Source: Peptoniphilus vaginalis
Lineage (GTDB): Bacteria; Bacillota; Clostridia; Tissierellales; Peptoniphilaceae
Assembly: GCF_900176605.1 (NCBI RefSeq)
Contig: NZ_FXLP01000005.1
Span: forward strand, 682,001 to 746,000
DNA length: 64,000 nucleotides
Direction: 5' to 3'
The notes under the pieces were generated by a model that saw nothing but the letters and a program-made list of their open reading frames with translations, searched no databases and had not been told where the DNA came from. This document shows, piece by piece, positions 1 to 60,680 of this stretch. The position numbers and the translations under genes were made by a program. How positions within the stretch are numbered: position 1 is the first letter of the stretch; each line of letters begins with the position of its first letter.

Positions 1-1075
1 ATAATTTTTCCCCAGTCTTCTTCATAATTTCTAAGAGGTGGATACCTGTTGCAAGCCCATCTCCCGTTGTATTGTAGTCAAGGAAGATTACGTGACCAGA
101 TTGTTCTGCTCCAATTACATAATCATCGGAAAGCATCTTTTCTAGGATGTACCTGTCCCCAACCTTAGTCTCAACAAAGTCCACGTCAATTTTTTCAAGA
201 TACTTCTTTAGACCCACATTAGACATTATTGTTCCCACTGCTGCATTGTTTTTTAGTCTGCCATTCTTCTTTAAGTAAGTTGCAACAATGGCAAGTATGT
301 GGTCGCCATCTACAATATTGCCTTCTTCATCAACAGCAATAATTCTGTCAGCATCTCCATCAAAGGACATACCAATGTCGGCTCCCTCTTTTTTTACAAG
401 CTCTTGAATTAGATCAGGATTTGTTGAACCACAAGAGTCGTTTATATTCATTCCATTAGGTTCATTGTTGATAATTTTAACCTTGGCACCATAGGACTTT
501 AGGACTTCTTCGGCTATGTGAGATTGGGCACCGTTGCCTGCATCCACTGCAACTTCAAAGTCTGAGAAGTCAAGATCAACTAAATTCTTTAAGTAGTCCA
601 CATATTTTTGAGTAAATTCAGGGGACCTATTTAGCCTTCCAATTTCTTCTCCTGTTACGTCCTTGTATATTTTTGTAGTTGAAAGAATTTTTTCTTCTAT
701 TTCATCTTCTACTTCATCATCTAACTTTAGCCCCTCTGATGAGAAAAATTTAATTCCATTGTGTTCATAAGGGTTGTGAGATGCAGAAATAGATACTCCA
801 CATAGGTAGTCGCCAGTCCTTGTTAAGTAAGCAACACCTGGAGTTGGTATCACTCCTGCCAAGTCCACATCAAGTCCTATACTCATAAAACCTGCCACAA
901 GAGAAGACTCAACTAGGTCTCCTGAAAGTCTTGTGTCTCTTCCAACTAGGACCTTGCCCTTCTTGCCCTTGGCAAGTACATAGGCTGCTGCCCTTCCAAT
1001 ATCATAGCAAAGCTTTGGAGTTAGTTTCTTGTTAGCAATTCCACGAACTCCATCTGTTCCAAATAATCTTGTCAT
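1..1075 (-). CDS. glmM: Phosphoglucosamine mutase GlmM (partial, C-terminus outside window)
   Basis: Interconverts glucosamine-6-phosphate and glucosamine-1-phosphate on the way to UDP-GlcNAc and peptidoglycan. Translating the minus strand gives MTRLFGTDGVRGIAN at the N-terminus, the family signature. The phosphoserine loop reads GVSISASHNPYEHNGIKFF, and the metal-binding loop is DGDADR (in MSFDGDADRIIAVDEEG). The frame stays open to the window edge, so about 358 residues of a usual ~450 are present. Missing are the rest of domain 4 and the stop. The start is ATG at 1075 with an AGGTGATG ribosome site overlapping the end of the preceding gene; the cca stop lies 4 bp upstream, so the two are probably co-transcribed. 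The assignment is secure. Confidence 0.95.
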   Translation of the reverse strand, partial: MTRLFGTDGVRGIANKKLTPKLCYDIGRAAAYVLAKGKKGKVLVGRDTRLSGDLVESSLVAGFMSIGLDVDLAGVIPTPGVAYLTRTGDYLCGVSISASHNPYEHNGIKFFSSEGLKLDDEVEDEIEEKILSTTKIYKDVTGEEIGRLNRSPEFTQKYVDYLKNLVDLDFSDFEVAVDAGNGAQSHIAEEVLKSYGAKVKIINNEPNGMNINDSCGSTNPDLIQELVKKEGADIGMSFDGDADRIIAVDEEGNIVDGDHILAIVATYLKKNGRLKNNAAVGTIMSNVGLKKYLEKIDVDFVETKVGDRYILEKMLSDDYVIGAEQSGHVIFLDYNTTGDGLATGIHLLEIMKKTGEKL

Positions 1076-53773: not shown

Positions 53774-56700
53774 TTAAATTCCCACAAAGACCTCAACAAT
53801 TTTTCTAATCTTATCAAGGACAGAATCTTTTTTCTTTTCCCTTGCACCATGTCTACGTGAAGTCGGTGGAAGAATGCGGTCTAGTTCATCCCCTGCATAG
53901 TCCACGTATCCCTTGCTAATAGATTTTTCAATAAACCTTCTTGAATCATCCTTTAACTTTTCATCTTCAATCAAGTCCTCTATCTTTTTACTCTTCTCCT
54001 TCTTGGCAAAAGTGTAAAAAGATTCTAAGATGTCATCAGTATTTTTTAATTCAGACAACCTAGTTGAGTTAATAAAATCCATAATTAATTCTTCCTTAGC
54101 TCTTGTTCCAAGACTGGACCTAATTACCCTTCTTACTTCAACTTTAATACTTTCAACATCTTCATGTTCTTTAGATTTTTCCAAAATTAAAGATAAAATA
54201 TAGTCTAGGTTAATCTCATCAGTTTTAAGCAAGTCGATTTGAAATTCAAGGTCAGAAAAATCAATTCCCTCATCAGACTTACCTTCCCTTTTAGAACTTA
54301 AAACACTTTCTCTAATATCAACATAGACACTCTTCATGTCTTGCATCTGTCTATCAGAAATAATCTTTTCAAAGTTTTCAAACTCATCAAAGTTTTTCAA
54401 AATATTTTCAGCCTTGAGGAGTTCTCCAAAAAGTTCTGCAAATTCTTTCTTGTCTGCTTCCAAAACAATCTCTGTTGGATCTGGAAATTTTGAAACTAAG
54501 TCATTACAAATTTCTACATAGCCCTTTTGAACCTTGCCAGTTTCCTCATCCTTAAAACCATTGATGTATTCTTCGTAAGACTTTTCCAAAATAACATTTA
54601 CGCTGTTTTCATCCCCAAAGGTCTTAATCGCATCCTTTGTCGCCTTCTCCAAGTCCCTAAAGCAGACAATATTTCCAAAAGTTTTTACCTTATTGAGGAT
54701 CCTATTAGTTCTTGAAAAAGCTTGAATAAGTCCGTGATACCTTAAGTTTTTGTCAACGAAGAGTGTGTTCAAAGTAGGAGCATCAAAGCCAGTTAAAAAC
54801 ATACCAACAACAATAAGCAAGTCAACTTGTTTATCCTTTACCTTTAGAGATAAGTCCTTGTAGTAATTTTGAAATTCATTTCCGTTAGTAGAGAAGTTTG
54901 TTTTAAAGTAACCATTGTAGTCATCTATTACCTTATCCAAAAACTCCTTAGCAGAAGATTCCATAGCAGAAGGATCAAAGTTTTCTTCAGAAATTTCTCC
55001 AATAGCCCTTTGCTCTTCATTAGCTGCAAAACTATAAATAGTAGCTACCTTCAACCTCTTATCTTCAGGCAAAGATTCTTGTTGTCTTTGAAACTCTTCA
55101 TAATATAACTTAGCAGCATCAACACTTTGAACAGCAAACATAGCATTAAATCCATTGAGCCTTCTATGTTTTAAATCATAAAACTCATTGCGGTGGGTCT
55201 TGGTATCAAAGACATCGAGAATGTACTTAGTAATCTCACTAATTCTTTCAGGATGAAGAAGCATTTTCTTTTCCAATTGCTCTAACTTCTTTTCATCCTC
55301 TTCTTTTTCAGCATTTTTAAATTTAGGCTTGATGTTGTTGTAATCAACCTTGAACTTTAGGACCTTTCCATCACGAATGGCATCAGTGATTACATAAGAG
55401 TGGAGCTGCGCTCCAAAAATTCCTGCAGTTGTATCGCCACCAAGAGAATTTTCTGGGAAAATTGGCGTACCAGTAAAGCCAAATTGGTAGTATTCCTTAA
55501 AAGCCTTTCTTATATTTTTTTGTGCATCACCAAACTGAGAGCGGTGACACTCATCATAAATAAGAACACACTGCTTATCATAAATATCGTGATTAGGATT
55601 CTTCTTCACAAACTCATTTAACTTTTGAATAGTAGTTACAACAATCCTGTTGTCATCCTTTTCGATGCACCTCTTAAGCTCCTTAGTATCCTTACTACCA
55701 TTGACAGAGTCAGGTTGAAATCTTTGGTACTCCTTCATAGTTTGATAGTCAAGATCCTTCCTATCAACAACAAAGAAGACCTTGTCAATAAAGTCCAAAT
55801 TAGTAGCAAGCCTTGCCGCCTTAAAAGAAGTTAAAGTCTTACCAGACCCAGTAGTGTGCCAAATAAAACCACCGGCCTCAGGTCTGCCAAACTTTTTCGC
55901 CTCATAGCTAGACCTTATCTTCCATAAAATTCTTTCAGTTGCAGCAATTTGATAAGGACGCATAATCAAAAGAGTATTGTTGACATCAAAGACACAATAC
56001 TTAGTAAGGACTTCAAGCACAACACGCTTTTCAAAAAAGGTCTTAGTAAAATCCTCTAAGTCACAGATAACTTTATTCTTAGCATCAGCCCACTCGCAAG
56101 TGAACTCATAATTATTCTTGTTTTGAGCAGTGGTATTTGCAAAATACCTAGTGTAAGTCCCATTAGAAATTACAAAAATTTGGACAAACTTATAGAGAGA
56201 ATTATCACTATTAAAACTTTCCTTGCTATACCTGTGAATTTGGTTAAAGGCCTCATGCAAGTTTACCCCTCTTTTTTTAAGCTCGATATGGACAAGGGGC
56301 AAGCCATTTACCAAAATCGTCACATCATAACGATTATGACTTTTGCCCTCTCCCTTCACCTGATTGGTAACCTGCAAGAAATTATTGTGAATATTCTTCT
56401 TGTCAATAATCTTAATGTTTTTCAAATGACCATCATCAAAAGTGAAATCATAAATATAATCTTCTTGAATCTTCCTAGTCTTTTCAACCATCCCATCACT
56501 GGGAGCATCTAAATACTCAACTAAAAATCTTTTCCACTCATCATCAGAAAAGGAAATGCTATTTAACTTCTCAATTTGTAGCCTCAAGTTCCTATACAAT
56601 TCCTCACTGTTCCTCGTCTTTATAAACTCATAACCCTGAGAAACTAAATTATCAATCATCTTCCTTTCAAGATCACCTTCACTTTGATAAGAAGACTCTC

Positions 56701-56794
56701 TAGCACTTAAATCCCTTTTAAAATTTGCTAGAATAATTCCATTGGTCAACTCAGCAATAGTCGACGTATTGTAATTTATAATTTTCTCGGACAT
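53774..56794 (-). CDS. hsdR: Type I restriction enzyme, R subunit (ATP-dependent translocase/nuclease)
   Basis: 1006 aa, the usual length. The N-terminal nuclease motif is visible as YDVTILVNGLPLVHIELKKRG (D-x(n)-E-x-K, ~153-173). Helicase motor: motif I HTTGSGKTLTSFKAARLA (~314), motif II YDECHRSQFG, motif III FTGTPIFPEN, motif VI FSRTNRILN. The C-terminus is helical and should contact the methylase complex. It cuts DNA at a distance after translocation when the HsdS-recognised site lacks methylation. It is last in the hsdM-hsdS-hsdR operon, 12 bp after hsdS, with GGAG before its ATG. No frameshift seen. Confidence 0.93.
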   Translation of the reverse strand: MSEKIINYNTSTIAELTNGIILANFKRDLSARESSYQSEGDLERKMIDNLVSQGYEFIKTRNSEELYRNLRLQIEKLNSISFSDDEWKRFLVEYLDAPSDGMVEKTRKIQEDYIYDFTFDDGHLKNIKIIDKKNIHNNFLQVTNQVKGEGKSHNRYDVTILVNGLPLVHIELKKRGVNLHEAFNQIHRYSKESFNSDNSLYKFVQIFVISNGTYTRYFANTTAQNKNNYEFTCEWADAKNKVICDLEDFTKTFFEKRVVLEVLTKYCVFDVNNTLLIMRPYQIAATERILWKIRSSYEAKKFGRPEAGGFIWHTTGSGKTLTSFKAARLATNLDFIDKVFFVVDRKDLDYQTMKEYQRFQPDSVNGSKDTKELKRCIEKDDNRIVVTTIQKLNEFVKKNPNHDIYDKQCVLIYDECHRSQFGDAQKNIRKAFKEYYQFGFTGTPIFPENSLGGDTTAGIFGAQLHSYVITDAIRDGKVLKFKVDYNNIKPKFKNAEKEEDEKKLEQLEKKMLLHPERISEITKYILDVFDTKTHRNEFYDLKHRRLNGFNAMFAVQSVDAAKLYYEEFQRQQESLPEDKRLKVATIYSFAANEEQRAIGEISEENFDPSAMESSAKEFLDKVIDDYNGYFKTNFSTNGNEFQNYYKDLSLKVKDKQVDLLIVVGMFLTGFDAPTLNTLFVDKNLRYHGLIQAFSRTNRILNKVKTFGNIVCFRDLEKATKDAIKTFGDENSVNVILEKSYEEYINGFKDEETGKVQKGYVEICNDLVSKFPDPTEIVLEADKKEFAELFGELLKAENILKNFDEFENFEKIISDRQMQDMKSVYVDIRESVLSSKREGKSDEGIDFSDLEFQIDLLKTDEINLDYILSLILEKSKEHEDVESIKVEVRRVIRSSLGTRAKEELIMDFINSTRLSELKNTDDILESFYTFAKKEKSKKIEDLIEDEKLKDDSRRFIEKSISKGYVDYAGDELDRILPPTSRRHGAREKKKDSVLDKIRKIVEVFVGI

Positions 56795-56806: not shown

Positions 56807-58672
56807 CTACTTAGGAAAATTCAAAAGCCTTTCTCTATAATACTCATACTGTTTTTGTCTTAACTCAATCTCTTTAGGTAAGCCTTCCTTAATGTCATTT
56901 ACCAACCTATCAAACTTGTCTAGGATAGAAACAACTTTTTCTTGTACCTCCATTGGTGGCACTAAAATTTTATATTCCATTATTTTTTTCTTATCCCCTC
57001 TTGGCATCTTCGCACCTTTTGAAAAATTAATATTATAATCAAAAAATTTCTCAGAAGATAATACTTGATATAAATATTTTGGTAATATATTATTCTTCCA
57101 ATCGTCTTTTATTACAAAAATAAGAACATCTCCATTTGCTCCACCAAATCTATCTGAGAGCCAAATTTTTCTTAAATAAGGTCTAATATTCCCTAACAAA
57201 ACATCATTCTCTCTAAATATATTAACTTTTCCTTCCGGCGGTAAATAAGAAGAATCAACTTTCCCACATTTATCTTTTAACAAATTATCTACACCAACAT
57301 AATTGCTGTTGTTCAAGTCATTAACATTAATTTTTTCATTAGAATAATTTGTTATATCTTTTAATAAGAAATCACTAACATTATATATAAATCTAATTCC
57401 CACAATATCGCACGCTTGCTTTAATGTAGCAAAGTAACTCCTAAGAGTTATTTTGCGGCGTGCGGCGTGCGGCGTGCGGCGTGCGGCGTGCGGCGTGCTA
57501 TCACTCTTGTCTTCGAATGTCAAGAGTTTTTCACGATAATACTCATATTGTTTTTGCCTTTCTTCAATCTCCTCTGGCAACAAACCCTGACTATCAGAAA
57601 GCAATTCTTGAAACTTATCCAAAACCTCAACAACCTTATTTTGAACATGTATGCTTGGTAAAGGCACCTTATAATTATCTGTAAGGCCAGTTGCTATTTG
57701 GGGTAACTTTCCTGAAATTGCATTATCTTTGAAATATTTCAAATTATTTTTTAAAATATAGTATAAAAACTTTATATTTAATTTTTCTTCATCCAAACTT
57801 GAATAAGACCACATTTCATTTTTATGAGTAAAATCTCTGTCATAATATTCAAAGTCTATGTTTCCTCTTGACTTAACTATTACGCTTGGCTTATTTATAA
57901 TATTTTCAATACCAACCTCTTCAGTCGAAAGATTTGCTGTAGTATTTCCACCAGCGAATACTTTAACACTAGAATTTTCCTTATCTAAGCTCTTCATTTG
58001 CTCAGCGGTTATTTTTATACCTCTCTGTCTTAGACATAGTTCAGATATTTTAACAAAATCAAAGCTTTTTAAATCTTCTATTTGACAGAATTCATTAGTG
58101 AGTTTGGTTAAATATTTTTCACTTAAAAGCGTATCCCTATAATACTCATACTGCTTATTTCTTGCCTGTAACTCAGCCTGTAACTCAGTAACATAATTTG
58201 TAAATTTATCAAGTGTTTTAACAATTTTTTCTTGAATTTCTAAAGATGGGATTGGAATTTTTAAAGTTTTTAATTCACTTGCATTTAGTGCTGGTATTCC
58301 ATTGAAACTGCATAATTTATGAATATCCGTTTGTAAATTATTTAATAAATGATATAAAAATCTAACTCTTAAAATTTCTTTACCTTTAATAGTTACAGAA
58401 TAATTTAGATTTCCTCTGTAATACTTTCCTAATTGATAGGTAATTGATCCTACTCCTGCTCCTCTTGAAGTTATTCCGATTGGATCATCTTCTGTGTTCC
58501 AAATATTTATGTAACCAAGAGGATCTTTCCCACTATTTATGACAGGATATATACCTTTATTTTTTTCAATTTTGGTTTTACTTATAGCTTGACCTGTTTT
58601 TATCTCGCAAACTTCCCCTAACTTCTTCCACTCGACCTTTTCATTCTTTAATAATTCATCTATCTTACTCAT
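56807..58672 (-). CDS. hsdS: Type I restriction-modification specificity subunit with three target-recognition domains and a 7-bp repeat tract
   Basis: 621 aa, about 200 longer than a standard HsdS (~400 aa, two target-recognition domains). Three TRD-plus-helix units are seen. Unit 1 (~15-190) ends [17 protein letters not shown] ... [13 protein letters not shown]. Unit 2 (~205-390) ends [17 protein letters not shown] ... [15 protein letters not shown]. Unit 3 (~420-621) ends [16 protein letters not shown] ... [15 protein letters not shown]. Units 2 and 3 are joined by [14 protein letters not shown] (393-406), encoded by six copies of ACGCCGC. In the two other frames translation stops 2-5 codons after the tract, giving ~405-412 aa two-domain proteins. 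The ATG at 58672 has GGGAG ahead and overlaps the hsdM stop by 8 bp; a TTG at 58678 is less likely. Confidence 0.9.
57455..57496 (-). repeat. Perfect heptanucleotide tandem repeat (6 x 7 bp) inside hsdS
   Basis: Six uninterrupted copies of GCGGCGT on the plus strand (ACGCCGC on the coding strand), 42 bp, followed by a partial GC. The tract is very GC-rich in an AT-rich genome. Seven is not a multiple of three, so gain or loss of one unit shifts the frame of hsdS. Confidence 0.97.
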
Positions 58673-60245
58673 CTTCAAGCTCCCTTACTATTTCATTTAT
58701 AGAAGCTCTTAGCTCGTCTATTTTCTTTACAGTTACATCAATTTCCTTATTGAGGACCTTGATGTCTATCTTTTCCCTTGTGTCTTCCTTTTCTACATAA
58801 GTGGAAACTGAAAGGTTGTAGTCATTTTCTACTATTTCATCTATGTCTACATATCTGGAGAAGTGTTCCTTTTCTTCACGATTTTTAAATTCTTCCACTA
58901 TTGTCTTGATGTTATTTTCTTCTAAGATGTTGTTATTAGTTTCCTTTTTAAATTCCTTGCTTGCATCAATAAATAAGATTTTATTTTCTGTCTTGTTCTT
59001 CGCCATTACGAGGACGCAAGTTGCTATTGATGTTCCGAAGAAGAGATTTTCTGGTAGTTGTATTACACAGTCGATGAAGTTGTTGTCTACTAGGTACTGC
59101 CTAATTGTTTTTTCTGCTCCCTTCCTATAAAAAATCCCCGGAAAGCAAACTATGGCTGCCCTTCCTTGGCTTGATAAATAAAAAAGTGAATGGAGTATAA
59201 AGGCATAATCTGCATAAGATTTTGGTGCCAACTTGCCTGCTGGGGCAAATCTTTCATCACTTATAAGGGTTGGATCCTTATCTCCTATCCACTTTATTGA
59301 GTAAGGTGGATTTGAAACAATGGCATCAAAGGGTTTTTCATCTCCATGAAGGGGATTTATTAGGGTGTCTCCTCTTCTTATAGAAAAGTTGTTGTAGTTG
59401 ACATTGTGAAGGAACATATTCATACGGGCTAGGTTGAAGTTGGTCATGTTGATTTCTTGACCAAAGAAGCCTTCGTCAATTATATGTTCATCAAATTGCT
59501 TCTTCATTTGCAAGAGCAGGGACCCACTTCCGCAAGTAGGATCATAAACCTTGTTGATGCTTGTCTTGCCTTCCATTACTATCCTTGCCAAGAGTTTTGA
59601 TACAGTTTGTGGTGTGAAGAATTCTCCACCTGACTTACCTGCATTGCTTGCGTAGTTAGAGATTAAATATTCGTAGGCATCGCCAAAGGCATCTATGTCA
59701 TTGTCTTTGAAGTCGCCAAAGTTTATTTTATCTATCCCTATTAATATGTCACATAATCTTTTGTTTTTCTCTGCGACTGTTCCGCCTAGTTTGTTGCTTC
59801 TTGTATCTACATCTTCGAAGAGTCCTTTTATATCGTCTTCTGATTGGAAACCTACAGCACTTCCTTCAATGTCTTTAAATATATTTGCAAGGTCTGTGTT
59901 TAAGTTTTCATTATTTTTTGCTGTCTTTACTACATTTTTAAAGAGTTGACTTGGCAAGATAAAGAAGCCCTTATCTTCTACTGTGTTTGGTCTAAAGTCT
60001 TGCTCTGCTTCTTCATCTGAAATTTCTGCGTAGTCAAATTCCAAATCTCCTGCTTCGTGTTCTGCTTTGTTAAAAAATTCTGTAATGTTTTCTGAAATGA
60101 ATCTGTAAAATAAAATTCCTAATATGTATTGTTTGAAGTCCCAGCCGTCTACTGCTCCTCTAACATCATCAGCTATTGCCCATATTTTTCTATGGAGCTC
60201 TGCTCTTTGTACTGTCTCTAAGTTTTCTTTTATCTTATCAGCCAT
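58665..60245 (-). CDS. hsdM: Type I restriction-modification, M subunit (adenine-N6 DNA methyltransferase)
   Basis: 526 aa. N-terminal helical HsdM domain ([24 protein letters not shown], ~33-56), then the methyltransferase domain: SAM-binding motif [16 protein letters not shown] (~237) and the catalytic NPPYSIKW (~313), the NPPY form of N6-adenine methylases. A C-terminal helical tail contacts HsdS. First gene of the operon; the stop TAA overlaps the hsdS start by 8 bp. AGAGGT lies before the ATG. The purine-rich low-complexity stretch lies upstream. Confidence 0.95.
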
Positions 60246-60464: not shown

Positions 60465-60680
60465 TTAATATTAAATCTATAACTTAACTTTTTTTTATTA
60501 CTTAATACTTATTACTTATTACTTATTACCTCTTACTTCTTACCTCTTGCTCAATTTTTCTTTCTTCTTTCTTCATTCTTCTTTCTTCATTGCTTATTAC
60601 TTCTTTCTTCTTTATTCATTACTTATTATTCATTACTTATTATTCTTTCCTCTTTACTCTCTCCTATTACTTCCAAAATA
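60465..60680. repeat. Low-complexity, nearly G-free tract upstream of hsdM
   Basis: About 200 bp in which the plus strand contains only two G. It is built from imperfect TTATTACT, CTTCTTTC and TTCATT units, so the minus strand (the hsdM sense strand) is purine-rich. The rest of the gap 60246-60464 holds AT-rich sequence with no clear promoter and no gene. Confidence 0.75.

What the first reader, a model, noticed from the sequence alone, without database searches (positions are those of the whole stretch)
57455..57496. Heptanucleotide repeat in hsdS acts as a possible two-domain/three-domain switch
Six perfect copies of a 7-bp unit lie in hsdS between the second and a third target-recognition domain. 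I checked the three frames after the tract. Six copies read through into domain three (621 aa). Seven copies reach TAG after CAA AAT AAC TCT. Five copies reach TAA after GCA AAA. Both alternatives give ~405-412 aa proteins, the normal length of a complete two-domain HsdS. So slippage would not simply switch the enzyme off: it would toggle between standard HsdS and an extended form, perhaps changing DNA target or activity. Phase-variable type I systems are known; a switch that adds a whole third recognition domain is, as far as I know, unusual.
Basis: partly seen in the sequence, partly recalled or inferred. Interest (0 to 1): 0.88.

Follow-up and report, generated by a model that had tools for sequence, protein, structure and literature searches.

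The report
Repeat-gated third recognition domain in HsdS
A short repeated DNA stretch in a bacterial restriction-enzyme gene probably slips in length and so decides whether the protein that chooses DNA targets carries two or three recognition domains; the same layout occurs in many related bacteria.

Summary
Six perfect GCACGCC units (57457-57498, minus strand) lie in hsdS between its second and third target-recognition domains (TRDs). Six copies read through to 621 aa; 5 or 7 copies stop at 405 or 412 aa. Neighbours are EcoR124-type hsdM and hsdR. The layout recurs: 33 loci, this one included, have a TRD behind a tract at this junction (in 27, both upstream TRDs are on the DNA held). Tract units fall into 11 classes; none is a multiple of 3 bp, none contains T. 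Eleven loci are in frame, 19 out, 3 unreadable. In 24 loci tested TRD3 is open whatever the state; dN/dS in 10 chosen pairs is 0.085-0.196, and 47 of 48 shifted frames stop within 26 nt. TRD2 and TRD3 resemble the two TRDs of gonococcal NgoAV, whose poly-G tract switches specificity. Best reading: slippage toggles a complete two-TRD HsdS and a three-TRD HsdS that adds or changes methylation motifs. Slippage within a strain, activity of the long form and motifs were not observed. I found no description of this class in the papers searched; the main survey of hsdS repeats was not held.

The parts
58665..60245 (-). hsdM, 526 aa, intact
   Evidence: TIGR00497 hsdM, 706 bits; N6_Mtase and HsdM_N
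56807..58678 (-). hsdS, three-TRD specificity subunit, 623 aa (621 aa from ATG 58672)
   Evidence: three PF01420 stretches; PADLOC Specificity_I profile PDLC03126 of 690 positions, 583 bits, three stretches
58244..58633 (-). TRD1 (about residues 14-143 of the 621-aa form)
   Evidence: Pfam stretch, model secondary structure; coordinates
58127..58243 (-). central conserved helix CR1
   Evidence: helix 144-182 in the model
58164..58188 (-). 12-bp in-frame repeat (ELQA) x2.1 in CR1, like the EcoR124 spacer repeat (that likeness is recalled)
   Evidence: 2.8 to 4.1 copies in several relatives
57659..58060 (-). TRD2 (about residues 205-338); TRD2 region 48% identical to NgoAV TRD1 over 176 aa
57521..57652 (-). 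conserved helices CR2 (end of the two-TRD form)
   Evidence: helices 341-359 and 366-384
57457..57498 (-). (GCACGCC)6 tract, the proposed frame switch
57448..57450 (-). TAA that ends the protein with 5 (or 2, 8, 11) copies
57441..57443 (-). TAG that ends the protein with 7 (or 1, 4, 10) copies
57395..57436 (-). conserved linker [14 protein letters not shown] between tract and TRD3
   Evidence: profile A1 E 4.3e-9 on this locus
56957..57382 (-). TRD3 (about residues 431-572); TRD3 with CR3 56% identical to the NgoAV TRD2 region over 191 aa
56825..56953 (-). conserved helices CR3, like the canonical distal region
   Evidence: helices 574-592 and 598-616; closer than CR2 to the EcoR124 distal region in 24 of 24 loci
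53774..56794 (-). hsdR, 1006 aa
   Evidence: TIGR00348 hsdR 636 bits; EcoR124_C and T1R_D3-like

Best explanation
This is a phase-variable EcoR124-type (type IC) restriction-modification locus. A simple-sequence repeat gates the third TRD of HsdS. Replication slippage changes the copy number of the 7-bp unit. In two of three frames, translation ends at a stop just behind the tract and gives a complete TRD1-TRD2 HsdS. In the third frame (3, 6, 9... copies), translation continues through a conserved linker into TRD3 and its distal helix. The long form can pair TRD1 with TRD2 or TRD3 (or TRD2 with TRD3), so the enzyme gains or changes methylation and restriction motifs instead of being switched off. 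Shown: anatomy, frames, recurrence, constraint on TRD3. Inferred: slippage in this strain, activity of the long form, which TRDs pair, and the motifs.
For: Frame arithmetic. The same junction carries a tract in 33 loci; in the 34 tracts tabulated (these plus L022) there are 11 unit classes, no unit is a multiple of 3 and none contains T, so a tract never holds a stop itself. In the family search 17 of 130 genomes have the linker, and all 17 carry a tract (2.6-14.5 copies; one is a G8 run). In 17 relative loci (about 201 kb) scanned for units of 1-9 bp, 12 of 14 strong tracts lie at this junction (a run of N dropped). 11 of 30 readable loci are in frame. TRD3 reads open for 194-220 aa to its terminal helix in 24 of 24 loci, 16 of them out of frame. 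In-frame relatives have three Methylase_S stretches (8 of 8 tested), out-of-frame ones two before the tract (8 of 8). dN/dS is 0.085-0.196 in 10 chosen TRD3 pairs, three of them between out-of-frame loci. 47 of 48 shifted frames stop within 26 nt. L046 with AG x10 is out and L048 (same genus, junction 93.5% identical) with AG x12 is in. L008 and L011 are 98% identical on both sides of an exchanged TRD3. Some position-3 TRDs are 61-68% identical to position-1 TRDs of other loci. NgoAV, homologous in both TRDs, switches motif by poly-G; the three-TRD JHP1422 protein methylates two motifs. Two-TRD relatives end in a CR2-type (L015) or a CR3-type helix (L023, L085; judged by eye), so either may close on CR1.
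Against: No copy-number change was seen within one strain or species: the genomes searched are one per species. No methylome data. The first structure model gives good domains but an uncertain arrangement (pTM 0.55) from a mis-registered alignment, and the second is poor (pTM 0.38). dS exceeds 1 in six of the ten pairs, so those ratios are rough. Some tracts are short (AG x5, GCAAGCC x2.6, G8) and may be locked. Loci are related by descent or transfer, so counts are not independent. One relative, L087, has the linker without a tract. CR1 was the best match to the EcoR124 central region in only 12 of 19 loci.
Confidence: 0.76

Rival explanations
1. The three-TRD form is inactive or poisons the complex, so the tract is an ordinary on/off switch of the whole system; only the two-TRD form works.
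For: An 'off' state would also be adaptive; no activity of the long form has been measured. The model does not show a defined three-TRD arrangement.
Against: TRD3, linker and distal helix are conserved and constrained; a mere off switch needs no intact domain. The three-TRD JHP1422 protein is active.
Confidence: 0.13
2. TRD3 is mainly a silent cassette kept for recombination into positions 1 and 2; the tract matters little.
For: TRD families occur in different positions, and TRD3 is exchanged with flanks kept (L008 versus L011).
Against: A silent cassette needs no reading frame continuous with TRD2, no conserved linker, and no recurrent non-triplet, T-free tract at the junction.
Confidence: 0.07
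3. The tract is a fixed linker or an assembly accident in this strain and does not vary.
For: Only one assembly of this strain is available; some relatives have very short tracts.
Against: The window and P. gorbachii share the unit at 6.4 and 3.4 copies with 87% identical flanks; AG x10 and x12 in L046 and L048; three loci of relatives begin inside the tract, as if assembly broke at the repeat.
Confidence: 0.04

Closest known systems
NgoAV of Neisseria gonorrhoeae (poly-G in hsdS)
   Same: A slippage tract between two TRDs fuses or separates them and changes the motif: GCAN8TGC truncated, GCAN7STCA fused (PMC9577141 passages). The TRD1 and TRD2 of the gonococcal locus L100, which I identify as NgoAV by its two TRDs and its G run, are homologous to this locus' TRD2 (48%) and TRD3 (56%).
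   Different: NgoAV toggles one TRD (half S) and two TRDs by a G run; here a complete two-TRD S gains a third TRD, by a 7-bp unit.
H. pylori JHP1422/JHP1423 (Hpy99XV)
   Same: A three-TRD HsdS; active, with two motifs from different TRD pairs (PMC3936762 section 21).
   Different: No repeat-gated frame between TRD2 and TRD3 is described in the section read; TRD2 and TRD3 are identical duplicates there.
EcoR124I/II (type IC)
   Same: EcoR124-type HsdM/HsdR, CR1 with in-frame 12-bp repeats, distal helix like CR3.
   Different: EcoR124 HsdS has two TRDs and its repeat changes only spacer length (recalled).
H. pylori type IIG JHP1272
   Same: A second homopolymer tract changes the recognition site by frame (PMC3936762 passages).
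   Different: A type IIG enzyme, not a type I S subunit.
Inverting hsdS loci (SpnIII and others)
   Same: Phase-variable specificity of type I systems.
   Different: Recombination between hsdS copies, not slippage (PMC7394358 passages).

Membership tests
Type I R-M system, EcoR124-like (type IC) | adjacent hsdM, hsdS, hsdR of that family | tested here: met
   TIGR00497, PF01420, TIGR00348, EcoR124_C
Type I R-M system, EcoR124-like (type IC) | HsdS with two TRDs | tested here: not met
   three PF01420 stretches in the 6-copy allele; met only by the predicted 5- and 7-copy alleles
SSR-driven phase-variable locus | non-triplet tandem repeat inside the ORF that changes the frame | tested here: met
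SSR-driven phase-variable locus | copy number varies among cells or isolates of one strain or species | not testable with these tools
   one genome per species, no reads; only between-species differences seen
NgoAV-type specificity switch | tract between TRDs; both frames encode S forms with full TRDs | tested here: met
NgoAV-type specificity switch | the two forms methylate different motifs | not testable with these tools
   needs methylome data
NgoAV-type specificity switch | short form is a half S with one TRD | tested here: not met
   the short form keeps TRD1 and TRD2
JHP1422-type three-TRD HsdS | three consecutive TRDs, each followed by a helical conserved region | tested here: met
JHP1422-type three-TRD HsdS | one S subunit methylates two motifs | not testable with these tools
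   needs methylome data

The most novel reading that the evidence does not exclude
A widespread, undescribed class of type I systems in which a simple repeat toggles HsdS between one specificity (TRD1+TRD2) and several at once (TRD1+TRD2, TRD1+TRD3, perhaps TRD2+TRD3), so slippage adds methylation motifs to the genome without losing the first.
Probability: 0.42. Interest if true: 0.8.

Novelty: new variant of a known kind. Interest (0 to 1): 0.64.

Why it matters
If true, a whole group of mostly anaerobic bacteria carries a slippage switch that does not turn restriction off but adds a recognition domain. It would diversify epigenomes and phage defence at once, and it makes an open question directly testable: which TRDs pair in a three-TRD S subunit. 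The homology of TRD2 and TRD3 to NgoAV domains with published motifs gives concrete motifs to look for.

Tried and rejected
TRD3 restarted as a separate half-S protein in the out-of-frame state: I saw no shared start codon with a ribosome site. Behind the window's tract an AGGAG is followed by TTG, but that TTG is not in the TRD3 frame and its frame stops after three codons (reading; not a systematic test).

Structure: model 1 (pTM 0.55) was searched; TRD-plus-helix folds align over model range 12..621, which hints that CR3 packs near TRD1. Its alignment A2 was visibly mis-registered, so I do not rely on it. Model 2, from five in-frame proteins only, was poor (pTM 0.38) and was not searched.

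False positives dropped: L050 (tyrosine-recombinase-like reading by eye) and L099 (no HsdS context). L022 has the tract but TRD3 is lost; it is not among the 33 but is in the 34 tabulated. L012 is kept, though its MAG contig may be a chimera. L005 lacks most of TRD1. L033, L043, L094, L095 and L098 are kept although their loci do not reach back over both upstream TRDs; the other 27 do. The 24-locus analyses leave out L005, L088 and the second-linker loci L092-L098. The dN/dS pairs were chosen by me among alike TRD3 domains (an eleventh pair was identical).

Viral contigs: one scan, nothing. Phylum-wide search with linker A1: 2 of 398, the window itself and L050. Family of Bisgaardia's genome: 1 of 140, Bisgaardia itself.

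Literature: Atack 2020 (survey of repeats in hsdS genes) and the original NgoAV paper are not held (one search used a wrong DOI from memory), so I cannot say whether some of these loci sit in that survey's tables. Searches listed no paper on a repeat-gated third TRD that I recognised from titles and abstract starts. Beyond the listings I saw only the passages and one section.

Full report
WHAT IS THERE. The minus strand of the window carries hsdM (58665-60245), hsdS (56807-58678) and hsdR (53774-56794) of an EcoR124-like type I system. hsdS has three Methylase_S stretches. Between the second and third lies (GCACGCC)6 at 57457-57498. In a script I varied the copy number from 1 to 12: 3, 6, 9 and 12 copies read into the third domain; the others stop within a few codons behind the tract, giving 400-421 aa from the TTG start. 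With 5 copies the protein ends at a TAA (57448-57450), with 7 at a TAG (57441-57443). The tract is not chance: a mean of 0.02 matches to two tandem units with up to 2 mismatches in shuffles, 5 observed, and with up to 1 mismatch nothing elsewhere in the assembly.

IT RECURS. A scan of one genome per species with the HsdS protein gave 30 relatives. Translating junctions showed that many have a third TRD behind a tract of a different unit. A short linker follows the tract (consensus about YFxLLKEAADIVGV). A profile of 11 linkers (A1) hit 6 of 14 genomes of the genus, 17 of 130 of the family in 9 of 39 genera, 4 of 291 of the class, 2 of 398 of the phylum (the window itself and one false positive), 9 of 10 genomes of loci already found and 1 of 140 genomes of the family of Bisgaardia (Bisgaardia itself). 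The 17 family hits all carry a tract, of 2.6 to 14.5 copies, one of them a G8 run. A more distant family member, L088, has a different linker and (CGAA)14.5 at the same place, in frame, with three PF01420 stretches. A profile of that second linker hit 9 of 391 genomes of the class. One is L087, with TRD2 deleted and no tract; one (L099) is false; the other seven have AGAC-type or GAAC tracts at the junction, and in three of them the locus begins inside the tract. In total 33 loci have a TRD behind a tract: 24 with the first linker, L005, L088, and seven with the second linker. In 27 of them both upstream TRDs are on the DNA held; L005 lacks most of TRD1, and L033, L043, L094, L095 and L098 do not reach back far enough. 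L022 has only the tract left.

SIGNATURES OF A SWITCH. In the 34 tracts tabulated (the 33 plus L022), no unit length is a multiple of three and no unit contains T on the coding strand, so the tract never creates a stop itself; the units fall into 11 classes. Of the 30 loci that can be read, 11 are in frame and 19 out, close to the one third expected if frames are random. In 24 loci examined the TRD3 frame is open for 194-220 aa up to the terminal conserved helix, although 16 of them are out of frame. In-frame relatives have three PF01420 stretches (8 of 8 tested); out-of-frame ones have two before the tract (8 of 8 tested) and one in TRD3 (2 of 2 tested). TRD3 pairs that I chose have dN/dS 0.085-0.196 in 10 pairs (an eleventh was identical); three are pairs of out-of-frame loci; dS exceeds 1 in six, so those ratios are rough. 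In both shifted frames a stop comes within 26 nt in 47 of 48 cases (the other, L012, at 89 nt); at random positions in TRD3, 57% stop within 25 nt and 62% within 30 nt. In 17 relative loci, about 201 kb, 14 tracts with units of 1-9 bp passed a strict threshold (a run of N dropped) and 12 of them are at this junction; the other two are AG x6 in L007 and G12 in the two-TRD hsdS of L015; the tracts of L005, L011, L016 and L017 are below the threshold. These loci are related by descent or transfer, so the counts are not independent tests.

COPY NUMBER AND CASSETTES. The window and P. gorbachii (L002) share the unit at 6.4 and 3.4 copies, with 87% identical flanks; L046 and L048, 93.5% identical around the junction, have AG x10 (out) and x12. 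L008 and L011 are 98% identical through the 3' part of hsdM, TRD1, TRD2, tract and linker and again from the end of hsdS into hsdR, but have different TRD3 domains (42% identical), and AG x11 versus x5. TRD families also occur in different positions, e.g. L002 TRD1 with L044 TRD3 at 68%. So TRD3 is a true, exchangeable recognition domain.

WHAT THE LONG FORM MAY DO. The last conserved region, CR3, is closer than CR2 to the distal region of EcoR124 HsdS in 24 of 24 loci; CR1 is the best match to the EcoR124 central region in only 12 of 19. By eye, natural two-TRD relatives end either in a CR2-type helix (Parvimonas, L015) or in a CR3-type helix (Ezakiella peruensis, L023, and L085 of the same genus). 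Either helix may therefore close on CR1, and the long form could use TRD1 with TRD2 or TRD1 with TRD3. A gonococcal locus (L100, unannotated in the record; I identify it as NgoAV) has TRDs 48% and 56% identical to this TRD2 and TRD3, with a G9 run between them in frame. In NgoAV the truncated form, with 7 G, reads GCAN8TGC, and loss of one G gives the fused form, GCAN7STCA (passages of PMC9577141); G9 and G6 are the same frame. In N. lactamica carriage both the G run and a 12-bp repeat in hsdS vary (passages of PMC6232127). An H. pylori HsdS with three TRDs methylates two motifs, and engineered TRD1+TRD3 and TRD2+TRD3 forms are each active (PMC3936762 section 21). From these I infer that the long form is active and adds or changes motifs. 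An AlphaFold2 model has good single domains (mean pLDDT 81) but an uncertain arrangement (pTM 0.55), with low confidence at the tract; a second model was poor. The arrangement is not settled.

SECOND TUNING REPEAT. CR1 holds an in-frame 12-bp repeat (58164-58188, ELQA), 2.1 copies here, 2.8 to 4.1 in several relatives. In EcoR124 such a repeat sets the spacer length (recalled). The gene thus combines a spacing repeat and a domain gate.

KNOWN OR NEW. Phase-variable hsdS by repeats is known: 7.9% of hsdS genes were reported to hold such repeats (Atack 2020, cited in passages of PMC7394358, and PMC9577141; the paper itself is not held). Three-TRD S subunits are known (PMC3936762 passages), and PADLOC has a 690-position S profile that fits this protein. 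I found no paper that describes a repeat gate between TRD2 and TRD3 (searches; open-licence papers only). I therefore call it a new variant of a known kind, widespread rather than unique.

Noticed in passing
L008 242-5160: hsdM of P. faecalis is split near codon 238, with three adjacent serine-recombinase-like ORFs (557, 556, 497 aa; named by eye) directly upstream of its 3' part. hsdM is also in two pieces in G397 and partial in G348, G365, G338 and G009, some at contig ends. hsdM looks like an attachment site of a mobile element.
   Followed up: partly
L087 (G276): HsdS with TRD2 deleted: CR1 is followed at once by CR2, then the linker and TRD3; no repeat tract.
   Followed up: partly
L022 7197-7267: Peptostreptococcus sp. 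D1 hsdS ends just behind an (AGAC)17.8 tract; no third TRD follows.
   Followed up: no
L012 1-1303: A contig binned as Campylobacter is 99.9% identical to an Ezakiella MAG contig (L011) through TRD1 and TRD2 and diverges just before the tract; recombination at the tract or a chimeric assembly.
   Followed up: no
L015 6667-6678 (Parvimonas parva): A G12 run between TRD1 and TRD2 of a two-TRD hsdS, the NgoAV position.
   Followed up: no
window 60495-60655: Imperfect 7-bp/43-bp purine-rich (minus strand) tandem array about 250-410 bp upstream of the hsdM start; might affect transcription.
   Followed up: no
L005 5992-7497 (Fenollaria timonensis): hsdS ORF lacks most of TRD1 and has G8 at the TRD2/TRD3 junction, in frame.
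   Followed up: partly
L094, L095, L098: Loci begin inside the AGAC tract, as if assembly broke at the repeat.
   Followed up: no
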